Source: an uncultured Fidelibacterota bacterium (GTDB lineage Bacteria > Fidelibacterota > Marinisomatia > Marinisomatales > Marinisomataceae). From it: a stretch of 40,821 nt of DNA. Where the stretch lies: NCBI GenBank assembly GCA_902599655.1, contig CACKGC010000009.1, positions 1-40,821 on the forward strand, given 5' to 3'. Numbering within the stretch: the stretch's first letter is position 1; every line of letters starts with the position of its first letter. The notes under the pieces were generated by a model. That model had not been told where the DNA came from. It searched no databases and saw only the letters and a program-made list of their open reading frames with translations. Below are positions 24,446 through 40,821 of the stretch, piece after piece. A program made the translations under genes and the position numbers.

Positions 24446-25636
24446 ATGTTATTTGAATTTGATGAATTTTCAACGCAAAAAGCTAGGATTAAGGTCCTAG
24501 GAGTTGGTGGAGCAGGAGGTAATGCAATAAATAGAATGATTACGTCTGGTATGGAAGGTGTGGAGTTTATTGCTATCAATACAGATGCACAAGATTTAGA
24601 TAGCAACCCTGCTGAAACTAAAATTCAAATTGGAAAAGATTTAACTAAAGGATTGGGTGCTGGAGCAAAACCAGAAATTGGAAGAAAAGCAATAATGCAT
24701 GACAAGGAGGCTGTTTCATCAATTGTTGCTGGATCAGACCTTGTATTTGTTACTGCAGGAATGGGTGGTGGAACAGGGACTGGAGCAGCTCCAGTCGTAG
24801 CTAAAATTTGTAAAGAACTTGGTATATTGACTGTATGTATCGTTACTCTACCATTTAATTTTGAAGGTCCCAAAAAAATGTCAGCTGCAATGAAAGGTAT
24901 TTCAACAATGAGGAACTTTTGTGATACATTGATTGTAATACCAAATGAAAAACTACTTTCCGTGATTGATTATAATACTACTTTAGAAGAGGGATTTGCT
25001 GAATCAGATTCAGTGCTATTACAAGCTGCGCAAAGTATTTCAGACCTCATTAATAAGCAAGGAAATGTAAATATTGATTTTGCTGATGTGGAAACTGTTA
25101 TGAGTGGAATGGGAGATGCTGTGATGGGAACTGGAACTGCAAGGGGTGAAGAGAGAGCTGTATTAGCTGCACAGCAGGCAATTTGTAGTCCGCTTTTAGA
25201 TAATCAGTCAATTAAGGGTGCAAAAGCAGCTCTGGTAAATGTTACTGGAAATAAAAAAATGACCATGCGTGAAGTTGATGCAGCAACAAAGCTTATTTAC
25301 GAAGAAGCAGGTCAAGAAGTACATTTAATTTTCGGATGCGTTGTCGATGAAAATATGGCTGATGAATTAAAAGTTACTGTGATTGCTACTGGATTTAATC
25401 GTACACCAATAGAAGATATTGAGTATAAAAAAGAAATTCAAAAAAATGAATTTCACAAAAATACTAACGACTTAATGGAAACATCTAATACAACATTATA
25501 TAATCAAAAAAATGAAAACTCATTAAATGATGAAAATTTTGAGGATGAAAATGATGGCCCAACTTTGGTCTTTGATGATTTTGATCAAAGTGCTGATTTA
25601 GATGTTCCAGCTTATATAAGAAAACAAAATCGATGA
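24446..25636 (+). CDS. ftsZ: Cell division GTPase FtsZ
   Basis: Tubulin-like GTPase that polymerises into the Z ring. The 396 residues hold the GTP-binding domain with GVGGAGGNA (19-27), the tubulin signature GGGTGTG (107-113) and the T7 catalytic loop NIDFAD (209-214). The C-terminal domain runs to about 325, followed by an acidic linker (about 330-380) and the conserved C-terminal peptide DVPAYIRKQ, which binds FtsA. All key residues are intact. Its place is unusual: directly after ftsI and before murD rather than after ftsA. It overlaps murD by 4 nt, so it is embedded in the unit rather than merely adjacent. Confidence 0.98.
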   Translation: MLFEFDEFSTQKARIKVLGVGGAGGNAINRMITSGMEGVEFIAINTDAQDLDSNPAETKIQIGKDLTKGLGAGAKPEIGRKAIMHDKEAVSSIVAGSDLVFVTAGMGGGTGTGAAPVVAKICKELGILTVCIVTLPFNFEGPKKMSAAMKGISTMRNFCDTLIVIPNEKLLSVIDYNTTLEEGFAESDSVLLQAAQSISDLINKQGNVNIDFADVETVMSGMGDAVMGTGTARGEERAVLAAQQAICSPLLDNQSIKGAKAALVNVTGNKKMTMREVDAATKLIYEEAGQEVHLIFGCVVDENMADELKVTVIATGFNRTPIEDIEYKKEIQKNEFHKNTNDLMETSNTTLYNQKNENSLNDENFEDENDGPTLVFDDFDQSADLDVPAYIRKQNR

Positions 25637-38059: not shown

Positions 38060-39901
38060 CTATTTTTTAGCTACCAAGAATAATCTATAAAGAATCATAA
38101 TGATTATAGCAAGACCAACAAGATCATTCATTGGAGCAGGTAAAGATAAGCTTGGCCAGTAGTTTTTATCAAAGAACAGTGGAACTGCAATAAAGATAGC
38201 CATGAGTGCTTCTCCAGTTATTAATCCTGAAGCCATAAGCAGTCCATTATTTTTTCCATCTTCAGAAGCAGTTTTGCTAGCGAAGTGATTTAACATTCCT
38301 CCAATGAAAATTGGTAGAGTAAGTTCGACAGGAAGGTAAATTCCAATCGCAACAACAAGTATAGGGAATCTAAATTCTGCATTTCTTCGAGCTTGGTATT
38401 GGTCAAGAAGAATAATAAATATTCCTAAAATTGCTCCCGCATAAATCATCCCCCACTCTAAATTTCCAGAAAATACCCCGTTTGCTACATTGGTCATTAA
38501 TACAGCTTGTGGCGCAGGTAATTCAGAGCTACCAATACCATATGCTTCATGTAGTAGAGTTAAAACTATTCCAAGAGTTAAAGCTGCACTACTTACACCA
38601 ACAAGTTGCATCAGTTGCTGTTTCCATGGTGTTGCTCCAACAATATTTCCAGTTTTAAGGTCCTGAAGGTTATCTCCACCAATCGCTGCTGCACAACAAA
38701 CTACTGCTCCAATAAGAATTGCTGCTGCTGCACCTTTGGACGAGTCAACATCAAAAAAACTAATGATCAATAGAGAGCTGAATAATATCGTTGCAATAGT
38801 AACCCCAGAAATTGGATTATTTGAAGAGCCAACTACTCCTGCCATGTATGCAGCTACAGCAGAAAAAAGAAATCCGAAAATTGTCATAACTAATGATAGA
38901 ATAATTGCAGATGTCCAAGAACCTATAATTCCAAAGTAGGTAAGAGAAATTGGAACTAACATTGCTAGAATTGCCATAAATACGTAGTTGATTGGCAGGT
39001 CTTTTTCTTCTAAAGAAAGGTTATCAGCACTTTCTTTAAGTGTTTTTATGCTTAATTGAATGCTTTCAATTAATGGCTTAGCAAGTTGAATAACAGACCA
39101 AATACCACCCACAACCATGGCTCCAACTCCTAAATAACGTATTTTTGCATTCCAAATTCCATTAGCAATATCAAAATAATTTTCACCTTCAAACCCATAC
39201 ATGTATGAATATATTGGAATTGCAATAACCCATGATATCACACCACCAGAAAATACTAAAATACCAATGTTTCTTCCAACGATATAGCCAACACTAATTA
39301 AAGATGGGGATAGGCTTGCTCCCATACCAAAGATAGCACCCTTTATTGCTACTGCTCCACCAAGAGCACTAGACCAAATACCGAATGCTAATTCTCCAAG
39401 CTTTACGAATCCACCAAGTAACGCAGAGAACGCAATCATTTTTAAACTTTCTTTTGATTTATTAGCATCTGTTTCGTGACCAGTTTTTAGTACCGCAGCT
39501 GTTGCAACTCCTTCTGGAAATCGAAGTTGTGCTTTTAATATTAATGCTCTTCTTAATGGTACGGTGAATAATGCGCCTAAAATTCCACCGACCATAGCAA
39601 TTTTTGTTACTTCCCAATAGCTAATGGAATCCCAATATCCAATGAGCAACAAGGCTGGTAAAGTAAAAATAACTCCAGCAGCTAAAGACTCACCAGCAGA
39701 TGCTGCCGTTTGAACAATATTGTTTTCTAATATGTTTGAATTTTTAAAAAGTCTAAGAATCCCCATTGACATAATAGCCGCAGGAATTGATGCTGAAATA
39801 GTCATTCCTGCATAAAGACCTAAATATACCATTGCAGATGATAGGATTATTGACAAGAAAATACTTAAAAAAAAGGCTTTGAGAGTTATTTCATTTTTCA
39901 T
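38060..39901 (-). CDS. OPT-family transporter (oligopeptide or metal-chelate)
   Basis: Inner-membrane secondary transporter. The 613 residues contain about fourteen to sixteen hydrophobic helices. Family features are the opening LGLYAGMTISASIPAAIMSMGIL (about 27-49), PLRRALILKAQLRFPEGVATA (about 115-135), GSSNNPISGVTIATI (about 354-368), and CAAAIGGDNLQDLKTGNIVGATPWKQQ. OPT proteins carry small peptides, glutathione or metal-nicotianamine-like chelates; bacterial members are little studied and the substrate cannot be read here. It is divergent over 31 bp from a small His/Cys-rich protein and a TonB-dependent receptor. Confidence 0.9.
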   Translation of the reverse strand: MKNEITLKAFFLSIFLSIILSSAMVYLGLYAGMTISASIPAAIMSMGILRLFKNSNILENNIVQTAASAGESLAAGVIFTLPALLLIGYWDSISYWEVTKIAMVGGILGALFTVPLRRALILKAQLRFPEGVATAAVLKTGHETDANKSKESLKMIAFSALLGGFVKLGELAFGIWSSALGGAVAIKGAIFGMGASLSPSLISVGYIVGRNIGILVFSGGVISWVIAIPIYSYMYGFEGENYFDIANGIWNAKIRYLGVGAMVVGGIWSVIQLAKPLIESIQLSIKTLKESADNLSLEEKDLPINYVFMAILAMLVPISLTYFGIIGSWTSAIILSLVMTIFGFLFSAVAAYMAGVVGSSNNPISGVTIATILFSSLLIISFFDVDSSKGAAAAILIGAVVCCAAAIGGDNLQDLKTGNIVGATPWKQQLMQLVGVSSAALTLGIVLTLLHEAYGIGSSELPAPQAVLMTNVANGVFSGNLEWGMIYAGAILGIFIILLDQYQARRNAEFRFPILVVAIGIYLPVELTLPIFIGGMLNHFASKTASEDGKNNGLLMASGLITGEALMAIFIAVPLFFDKNYWPSLSLPAPMNDLVGLAIIIMILYRLFLVAKK

Positions 39902-39932
39902 AATCTTAACTTAATAAATTTTTAAAGTAAAA

Positions 39933-40208
39933 ATGAAAAAAACTATTATCGCATTAACACTTCTTTCTTTTGCCTTCCTTAGTTTACATGTACATATCCA
40001 TGAAAATGATCAATTAGATCATGTTTCTGATTACAATTCGGTTGAGGAAAATTGTGACTTTTGCCAGTTTAATAGTGATAAATCATTTGCAGAGGCATCG
40101 ACTTCTTCTGTTAGTATTAACTTTAAAAATATTACTTTTAAACAATATGTATCTAACTACATGTCGTTTAATATATTTTGTTTCTTAAACAAATCCCCAC
40201 CACAATAA
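39933..40208 (+). CDS. Small exported His/Cys-rich protein, possible metal binding
   Basis: Not recognised as a named family; it resembles short DUF2946-like proteins often seen beside TonB-dependent receptors. The 91 residues have an N-terminal hydrophobic segment (about 4-18) that could be a signal peptide. A histidine cluster HVHIHEN (19-25) follows, then DQLDHVS, an acidic stretch and CDFC (41-44). His-x-His-x-His plus Cys-x2-Cys could bind a transition metal. It lies 31 bp from the divergent OPT gene and 67 bp before the TonB receptor gene. Function unknown; metal binding is inference. Confidence 0.65.
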   Translation: MKKTIIALTLLSFAFLSLHVHIHENDQLDHVSDYNSVEENCDFCQFNSDKSFAEASTSSVSINFKNITFKQYVSNYMSFNIFCFLNKSPPQ

Positions 40209-40223
40209 TCTTATTATTACAAG

Positions 40224-40250
40224 CCGATATCAATATTTAATATCGGAGTT
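40224..40250 (+). terminator. Hairpin before the TonB receptor gene (terminator or attenuator)
   Basis: CCGATAT (40224-40230) pairs perfectly with ATATCGG (40240-40246) around a 9-nt loop, followed by AGTTTT. The T run is short and the hairpin is only 20 bp upstream of the receptor ribosome site. It could terminate the small gene, lower read-through into the receptor, or serve as a binding palindrome. Confidence 0.45.
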
Positions 40251-40275
40251 TTAACAAATCATTTTAGGAGAAAAA

Positions 40276-40821
40276 ATGAAAAACTATTTTAGTTTACTAA
40301 TATTAACATGCGCATTATTTGCTCAGAATGTTGTTACCGAATCTGATTCATTGAATCCGATTTCTCTTGAGGGTGTTGAAGTATATTCATCTTTAAGACA
40401 AGTCAATGAAGGAGATTTGGCTGCTTCTGCTATAATTTTTAATGATGAATTAGAGGTTATGGAAGGACAACACTTTAGTGACTTGCTTTTAAGAGTTCCT
40501 AATTTGAATTATGCTGGAGGTACTTCGAGACCAAGGTTTTTTCAAATTAGAGGTGAAGGTTCTGTAAGCAGATATGCCGACCAAGGACCGCCGAGTCCAT
40601 ATGTTGGTTTAGTTTTAGATGGAATGGATCTTTCTGAATTAGGAATGATTACACCATTATTTGATATGCAACAAGTTGAAGTTTTAATGGGTGTACAAAC
40701 AAGTTTGTTTGGAGCCTCAGCTTCATCAGGTTTAATTAATTTTAAAACTAATGATCCAACCGATGAAAAAGGTGGTTATGTTATGACCCAGCTTGGGTCG
40801 TACAACACCTATACCAATGGT
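40276..40821 (+). CDS. TonB-dependent outer-membrane receptor, N-terminal part (3' end outside window)
   Basis: Open frame of 182 codons running off the window. A signal peptide (MKNYFSLLILTCALFA, predicted cleavage before Gln17) is followed by a TonB-box-like EGVEVYSSLR (about 34-43). The plug domain shows FSDLLLRVPNLNYAGG, RFFQIRGEG (about 92-100), VLDGMDLSELG and VEVLMGVQTSLFGASASSGLINF (about 135-158). These are classical plug motifs; the beta-barrel lies beyond the edge. The strong ribosome site AGGAG at 40266-40270 is 5 nt before the AUG. Such receptors import iron chelates, vitamin B12, other metals or oligomers; the substrate is not visible. Confidence 0.9.
   Translation, partial: MKNYFSLLILTCALFAQNVVTESDSLNPISLEGVEVYSSLRQVNEGDLAASAIIFNDELEVMEGQHFSDLLLRVPNLNYAGGTSRPRFFQIRGEGSVSRYADQGPPSPYVGLVLDGMDLSELGMITPLFDMQQVEVLMGVQTSLFGASASSGLINFKTNDPTDEKGGYVMTQLGSYNTYTNG

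What the first reader, a model, noticed from the sequence alone, without database searches (positions are those of the whole stretch)
38060..40821. Possible outer/inner membrane uptake locus: OPT transporter, His/Cys protein, TonB receptor
An OPT transporter is divergent over 31 bp from a small exported protein with HVHIH and CDFC, followed by a TonB-dependent receptor. TonB receptor plus OPT could form a two-membrane route for a peptide or metal chelate, with the small protein as metal carrier or sensor. The hairpin between the last two genes may set their ratio.
Basis: inference. Interest (0 to 1): 0.5.

Follow-up and report, generated by a model that had tools for sequence, protein, structure and literature searches.

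The report
Vitamin B1 receptor with metal-type loops
At the end of this marine bacterial contig sits an outer-membrane receptor of a family tied to vitamin B1 uptake; in this lineage it has lost its vitamin-sensing RNA switch and gained metal-binding-like loops and a small metal-type companion protein, while the neighbouring inner-membrane transporter may not belong to the same job.

Summary
In detail: an OPT gene (38060-39901, -) is divergent over 31 bp from a 91-aa small protein (HVHIH, CDFC), then a hairpin and a TonB receptor cut by the contig end; the rest of the receptor opens another contig of this SAR406 (Marinimicrobia) genome.

The reading changes. Orthologous receptors in two deep genus members, in the order, and in gamma-/verrucomicrobia sit behind a TPP (thiamin pyrophosphate) riboswitch; a PnuC-type carrier follows in 7 of 11 of the last group. 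ThiC was found in 0 of 41 relatives, ThiE over cut-off in 0 of 41, thiamin pyrophosphokinase in 33 of 41. So this is a thiamin-family receptor. In most of the genus, window included, the riboswitch is gone, a CzcI-like small gene is inserted and the receptor carries His/Asp-rich loops, while family motifs stay. The hairpin covaries.

OPT-receptor adjacency is found across the order, but on other contigs OPT keeps an adenosine deaminase gene instead (7 of 7 clear cases), so a shared two-membrane route is doubtful. Most likely: a thiamin receptor that acquired metal-linked features; a full switch to metal uptake is the main rival. New variant of a known kind.

The parts
38060..39901 (-). OPT-family inner-membrane transporter (TIGR00733 type), 613 aa
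   Evidence: PF03169 E 1.7e-105, TIGR00733 E 4.7e-169; full-length orthologues 80-92% identical in the genus, 54-64% in most order members with a match, plus distant paralogues
39902..39932 (.). 31-bp divergent gap; in G005, G017 and G023 the same interval holds a TPP riboswitch (G017 below cut-off)
   Evidence: no Rfam riboswitch here
39933..40208 (+). small exported CzcI/LIC10965-like protein, 91 aa, HxHxH, CxxC, C-terminal NKSPP
   Evidence: 17-member alignment with invariant M1, C41, C44, N86-P90; NF047702 in 9 of 17 (best 0.0021), NF045614 CzcI in 4 of 17 (best 1.6e-4), weak
40224..40246 (+). covarying hairpin between the small gene and the receptor gene
40276..40821 (+). N-terminal 182 aa of a TonB-dependent receptor of the TPP-riboswitch (thiamin) family; cut by the contig end, rest at G000:C2:2-1633
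   Evidence: Plug PF07715; completion; riboswitch-controlled homologues; His/Asp-rich loops in the C2 part

Best explanation
The receptor descends from TonB receptors controlled by TPP riboswitches and most likely still imports thiamin (or a close analogue) across the outer membrane of a bacterium that, by the genes searched, cannot make it; imported thiamin is then turned into TPP by thiamin pyrophosphokinase. In this genus a small CzcI-like, probably periplasmic protein gene was inserted between the riboswitch and the receptor, the receptor gained long His/Asp-rich surface loops, and later the riboswitch was lost at least twice. The loops and the small protein most likely bind zinc or copper, making the receptor metal-responsive or dual-purpose. 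Shown: homology, riboswitch association, synthesis genes not found, loop gain, small-gene gain, riboswitch loss, hairpin. Inferred: thiamin as present ligand, metal binding, surface position of the loops, the order of use. The OPT transporter is a conserved neighbour whose link to this receptor is unproven (about 0.25 that it carries thiamin; this is not exclusive of the other readings).
For: TPP riboswitch RF00059 above cut-off directly upstream of orthologues or of their small gene in G005 (L031) and G023 (L027), 42.2 bits (below the cut-off of 54.3) in G017, above cut-off in 10 of 11 gamma/verrucomicrobial close homologues (L033-L043, not L038), and in 0 of 24 more distant receptor loci from the same search (L045; L044, L046-L067; L049 has no upstream sequence). 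Each of the 30 best riboswitch loci of the relatives (63 of 101 genomes had a match) has a TonB receptor directly downstream. PnuC-type gene right after the receptor in 7 of 11 (L033-L038, L043; PF04973 E 2.2e-46 for L033). ThiC 0 of 41, ThiE 0 of 41 over cut-off, TPK 33 of 41 including this genome. Motif YDxDW in 34 of 34 family receptors and 0 of 20 distant ones; GYDx[WF] at its site in 31 of 34 and 0 of 20. His-rich segments in 16 of 18 genus receptors examined, not in G005 and G017 (G017 cut off inside the loop), 0 of 5 in other families, 0 of 11 gamma/verruco; 10 other TonB receptors from five genus genomes have at most 2 His in 30 aa. Tree: G005+G017 split off first (100/99), G023 nested.
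Against: The window itself has no riboswitch, so its present control is not the TPP type. His-rich loops and a CzcI-like gene are not expected of a thiamin receptor; the second loop of L032 even gives a weak, sub-threshold zinc-protein hit (ZrgA NF047873 E 1.2e-4; may be composition only). A second receptor (716 aa) lies beside TPK in much of the genus (16 of 24 genomes have it, one as a fragment; adjacency) and might supply thiamin. No inner-membrane thiamin carrier was identified (PF04973 in 1 of 41, a weak fragment; ThiB subfamily over cut-off in 0 of 61, below it in 7). The motif was chosen after seeing the alignment, and four TB2 receptors behind TPP riboswitches lack it, so it marks the family, not proven ligand. 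The genus stem branch is long (1.71), as after a change of function.
Confidence: 0.55

Rival explanations
1. The receptor has left thiamin and now imports a metal (zinc or copper): the His/Asp loops capture the ion and the CzcI-like protein passes it on or senses it.
For: His/Asp loops and small gene go together and the riboswitch was lost afterwards. In G036 a distantly related small protein (E 0.0099, 32% identity) precedes a His-rich lipoprotein and a receptor whose best family is ZnuD (NF038289 E 1.2e-50, 172.9 bits, below its cut-off of 950). Weak ZrgA hit in the second loop. Long stem branch.
Against: The YDxDW motif is kept in all 16 His-rich members examined. G023 carries His-rich loop and small gene behind an above-threshold riboswitch. 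The genus still seems to need thiamin.
Confidence: 0.25
2. OPT is the inner-membrane thiamin carrier and forms with the receptor a two-membrane thiamin route, replacing PnuT. (Not exclusive of the main reading.)
For: OPT divergent from the riboswitch-receptor gene in 21 of the 30 best riboswitch loci, with two mutually distant receptor types in the slot. PF04973 in 1 of 41 (weak fragment) and ThiB subfamily in 0 of 61 over cut-off.
Against: OPT is followed by adenosine deaminase in 14 of 14 readable order loci beside the receptor and in 8 of 8 loci on other contigs (7 clear; L199/G033 may be the same locus split by contig ends). The riboswitch faces the receptor, not OPT. PolA is also a frequent neighbour, so part of the adjacency is backbone synteny. 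Nearest solved relative is an iron-phytosiderophore transporter (7wsr, E 3.1e-8).
Confidence: 0.25
3. One reading: OPT plus receptor carry a peptide or metal chelate, with the small protein as metal carrier or sensor.
For: Adjacency conserved; a solved OPT relative carries a metal chelate; small protein looks metal-linked.
Against: Receptor family is tied to TPP riboswitches (controls 96, 97); OPT keeps adenosine deaminase when away from the receptor.
Confidence: 0.08
4. The 716-aa receptor beside TPK took over thiamin uptake and freed the window receptor.
For: Next to TPK in part of the genus, absent between SOD and TPK in G017 and G003.
Against: Homologues (38-42% identity) sit in G030, G043 and G056, which also keep a riboswitch-controlled receptor; no TPP riboswitch was found near it in the genus and its best profiles are heme/hemoglobin and B12 receptors, below cut-off.
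Confidence: 0.12

Closest known systems
TPP-riboswitch-controlled thiamin TonB receptor (OMthi of Bacteroides thetaiotaomicron; omr1)
   Same: TonB receptor lineage behind a TPP riboswitch in a thiamin-requiring host; in B. thetaiotaomicron deleting OMthi raises the thiamin need of a synthesis mutant about tenfold, though the single deletion had no defect and its expression did not answer to thiamin (PMC5613172, passages); a putative omr1 is named in PMC12236431 (passages)
   Different: Window copy has no riboswitch and no PnuT neighbour, has His/Asp loops (C2 part) and a CzcI-like gene; homology to BT2390 itself was not tested
ZnuD-type zinc TonB receptors
   Same: His-rich loops (general knowledge of ZnuD is recalled); a distantly related small protein and a His-rich lipoprotein accompany a ZnuD-like receptor in G036
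   Different: The receptor itself is not of the ZnuD family (NF038289 E 0.009, 14.7 bits against 950; not among hits of the full L032 at E 0.01)
CzcI (Cupriavidus) and Leptospira LIC10965 small proteins
   Same: Weak profile hits from this family; CzcI is called a periplasmic protein that quenches Czc activity (PMC9045368, passages); LIC10965 and the TonB receptor LIC10964 are both upregulated in host-adapted Leptospira (PMC3953431, passages)
   Different: Hits are weak; no efflux genes next to it here
OPT family TIGR00733
   Same: Full-length match
   Different: Substrate unknown; here next to a thiamin-type receptor, elsewhere in the order with adenosine deaminase

Membership tests
TPP-riboswitch thiamin TonB receptors | TonB receptor fold (plug plus barrel) | tested here: met
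   Plug; AF2 model of the relative L032, pLDDT 77.4, pTM 0.80, top fold FyuA TMq 0.70
TPP-riboswitch thiamin TonB receptors | Protein descends from receptors directly behind a TPP riboswitch | tested here: met
   controls
TPP-riboswitch thiamin TonB receptors | Its own TPP riboswitch | tested here: not met
   none in 39800-40400, none found in G000; so not filed as a member of the riboswitch regulon
TPP-riboswitch thiamin TonB receptors | Transports thiamin | not testable with these tools
   no assay
TPP-riboswitch thiamin TonB receptors | Host needs imported thiamin | tested here: met
   ThiC 0 of 41, ThiE 0 of 41 over cut-off (7 of 41 weak), TPK 33 of 41; G000 is 81.5% complete, and other thi genes were not searched
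OPT family (PF03169/TIGR00733) | Profile match over cut-off | tested here: met
Zinc receptor ZnuD | Profile match over cut-off | tested here: not met
SusC/RagA polysaccharide receptors | TIGR04056 match | tested here: not met
   not among hits of the window part (E 1) or of full L032 (E 0.01); the order relative L131 has a hit below cut-off over residues 17-214 (49.2 of 368 bits)
CzcI / LIC10965 small proteins | Profile match over cut-off | tested here: not met
   NF047702 15.6 bits for the window protein against 130; NF045614 best E 1.6e-4 in 4 of 17 members, its cut-off not shown

The most novel reading that the evidence does not exclude
A vitamin B1 receptor in the act of becoming a metal-gated or metal/thiamin dual receptor, with an OPT-family carrier as the inner-membrane thiamin step: a two-membrane vitamin route that my searches did not find in print, and a visible change of control from riboswitch to metal-linked small gene plus hairpin.
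Probability: 0.15. Interest if true: 0.75.

Novelty: new variant of a known kind. Interest (0 to 1): 0.5.

Why it matters
SAR406 bacteria are widespread and uncultured in the ocean (recalled) and, by the genomes searched here, seem unable to make thiamin. Knowing their uptake receptor says how they depend on neighbours for vitamin B1. The genus also gives a stepwise series (riboswitch only; riboswitch + small gene + His loop; small gene + His loops only) in which a change of control and perhaps of ligand can be tested by ordinary binding and expression assays.

Tried and rejected
Polysaccharide receptor: rejected. Riboswitch remnant in the window: none; 31 bp leaves no room. OPT as thiamin partner: favoured, then weakened (adenosine deaminase stays with OPT). 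Takeover by the 716-aa receptor: low, see rivals. Pfam for the small protein: only scattered weak hits to unrelated families. Structure of the 91-aa protein: pLDDT 52.7, pTM 0.23, no use. Not tested: ThiT, YkoEDC, MFS and other thiamin carriers, ThiD, ThiL, ThiM, homology to BT2390. Literature: no paper of the library holds oligopeptide transporter + OPT family + thiamin + riboswitch, oligopeptide transporter + thiamin transport + TonB, or omr1 + thiamin + outer membrane receptor. Two hold Marinimicrobia + TonB-dependent + thiamin: PMC8034268 read in passages (no link between them there), PMC5317091 seen as a listing only. PMC12236431 read in passages (Marinimicrobia only as an abundance). Other papers in the listings were not opened, apart from those cited in Closest known systems. 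The library lacks most subscription journals. Dropped rows: receptors of G001 and G012 (broken frames) and G021 (masked stretch) were left out of the loop, motif and tree counts; G017 is cut off inside the loop; G003 lacks its N-terminal part; four of the 24 distant receptors (L049, L054, L057, L064) were not in the motif count of 20.

Full report
What is there. The window is one complete contig of genome G000 (706 kb, 22 contigs, 81.5% complete) and ends at base 40821. Its nearest named relatives, 78-95% identical over the matched receptor part, are nearly all labelled Candidatus Marinimicrobia/Neomarinimicrobiota (SAR406). The described genes are present as stated. The receptor is cut by the contig end; its remaining part opens contig C2 (G000:C2:2-1633) and is followed there by a PolA-like ORF, as in relatives. 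The hairpin before the receptor is conserved with compensatory changes over 12 aligned genus members: 89.2% of cells paired against 29.2-52.5% for slid versions.

What the receptor is. In L031 (G005) and L027 (G023) the interval behind OPT holds a TPP riboswitch above Rfam's cut-off; ten other genus loci in the same scan have none above it. G017 has a weaker match (42.2 bits, cut-off 54.3). The best homologues outside the phylum (L033-L043, gamma- and verrucomicrobia) have it directly upstream in 10 of 11 (L038 lacks it but has the PnuC-type gene), while the 24 more distant receptor loci of the same search have none (L049 holds no upstream sequence). In 7 of the 11 a PnuC-type carrier gene follows, and in L033 a kinase with a sub-threshold match to thiamine kinase follows that. 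Among 101 relatives 63 have a riboswitch match; the 30 best loci all precede a TonB receptor, of two mutually distant types, TB1 (the window's) and TB2. The TB1 receptors share YDxDW (34 of 34) and mostly GYDx[WF] (31 of 34; missing in G030 and G031, outside the fragment in G003); both are absent in 20 of 20 distant receptors and in the four TB2 receptors examined. As TB2 also stands behind TPP riboswitches, the motif marks the TB1 family rather than proving a ligand. Acidic plus aromatic residues would suit a cationic aromatic vitamin; that step is inference.

The host. ThiC is found in 0 of 41 genomes (13 of 14 controls ring), ThiE in 0 of 41 over cut-off (7 of 41 weak), TPK in 33 of 41 including G000. 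So thiamin most likely has to come from outside and is pyrophosphorylated inside. PnuC/PnuT-type carriers: 1 of 41, a weak fragment. ThiB subfamily: 0 of 61 over cut-off, 7 of 61 below it. ThiT, YkoEDC, MFS and other carriers were not tested.

What changed in this genus. Of 18 genus receptors examined, 16 have His-rich segments (at least 6 His in 30 aa); G005 and G017, which keep the riboswitch and lack the small gene, do not, though G017 is cut off inside the loop. The window genome has two segments, with 12 and 22 His (L148). Ten other TonB receptors from five genus genomes have at most 2 His in 30 aa. In the AF2 model of L032 both inserts (322-360, 611-658) have pLDDT under 50 and lie between long strands on the long-loop side, which by strand alternation is the cell surface; this is my reading of the strand list, not a measured topology. 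On the tree G005+G017 separate first (100/99), the His-rich members form one clade (92/81, short of the tool's star), and G023, with both riboswitch and small gene, is nested inside, so by parsimony the small gene came before at least two losses of the riboswitch. The tree tool warns of long branches and uneven composition, and the upstream part of G003 is unknown.

The small protein. 17 members share CxxC and a C-terminal NKSPP. The most consistent profile hits are LIC10965 family (9 of 17, best 0.0021) and CzcI (4 of 17, best 1.6e-4); five other families hit one or two members each. A distantly related protein in G036 (E 0.0099, 32% identity) begins a locus with a His-rich lipoprotein and a ZnuD-like receptor. 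Hence probably metal-linked and exported. AF2 gives no usable fold.

The OPT gene. It matches OPT over full length; its only solved relative found by sequence is an iron-phytosiderophore transporter. It is divergent from the riboswitch-receptor unit in 21 of the 30 best riboswitch loci, in a few of them as a fragment at a contig end; of the 9 others, L071, L083 and L087 lie at contig ends. But adenosine deaminase follows OPT in 14 of 14 readable order loci beside the receptor (L130, L131, L133, L135, L136, L173, L174, L175, L188, L207-L211) and in 8 of 8 loci where OPT lies on another contig (L198-L205). One of these, L199 (G033), may be the same locus split by contig ends, which leaves 7 clear cases; a 44% paralogue in L206 has no deaminase beside it. 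In the genus the deaminase is not next to OPT. So the OPT-receptor pairing is a conserved neighbourhood, not proof of a shared path.

Verdict. Ordinary parts in an unusual combination. The receptor's descent from TPP-controlled receptors is strongly supported. Its present ligand, the role of the loops, and any role of OPT remain open.

Noticed in passing
G055 loci L176-L183: One genome of the order has 12 TPP-riboswitch-like matches, 31 to 63 bits; apart from the OPT/receptor locus (L175), most of those with readable downstream sequence precede large secreted or otherwise unrelated ORFs (read by eye). Looks like an expanded riboswitch-like element.
   Followed up: partly
window 24446-25636: FtsZ lies between a PBP/FtsI-like gene and a Mur ligase, where murE/murF/mraY usually lie (recalled order), and not after the FtsA-like gene as in G002 (L172).
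   Followed up: partly
L169 6514-9913 (G000:C7), L171, L187: A 716-aa TonB receptor and a 161-aa lipoprotein-like gene sit between thiamin pyrophosphokinase and SOD in part of the genus, but not in G017 or G003.
   Followed up: partly
L068-L097, L130-L141: Two mutually distant TonB receptor types occupy the same TPP-riboswitch slot, often next to OPT, in different families of the order.
   Followed up: partly
L025-L031 receptors versus window 40276: Receptors of the other genus members have an extra N-terminal carboxypeptidase-like stretch that the window clade lacks (read by eye).
   Followed up: no
L018 6001-8375, L025 5009-5302 and 5698-7176: Receptor frame broken in G012, and OPT and receptor frames broken in G001; could be sequencing errors or decay.
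   Followed up: no
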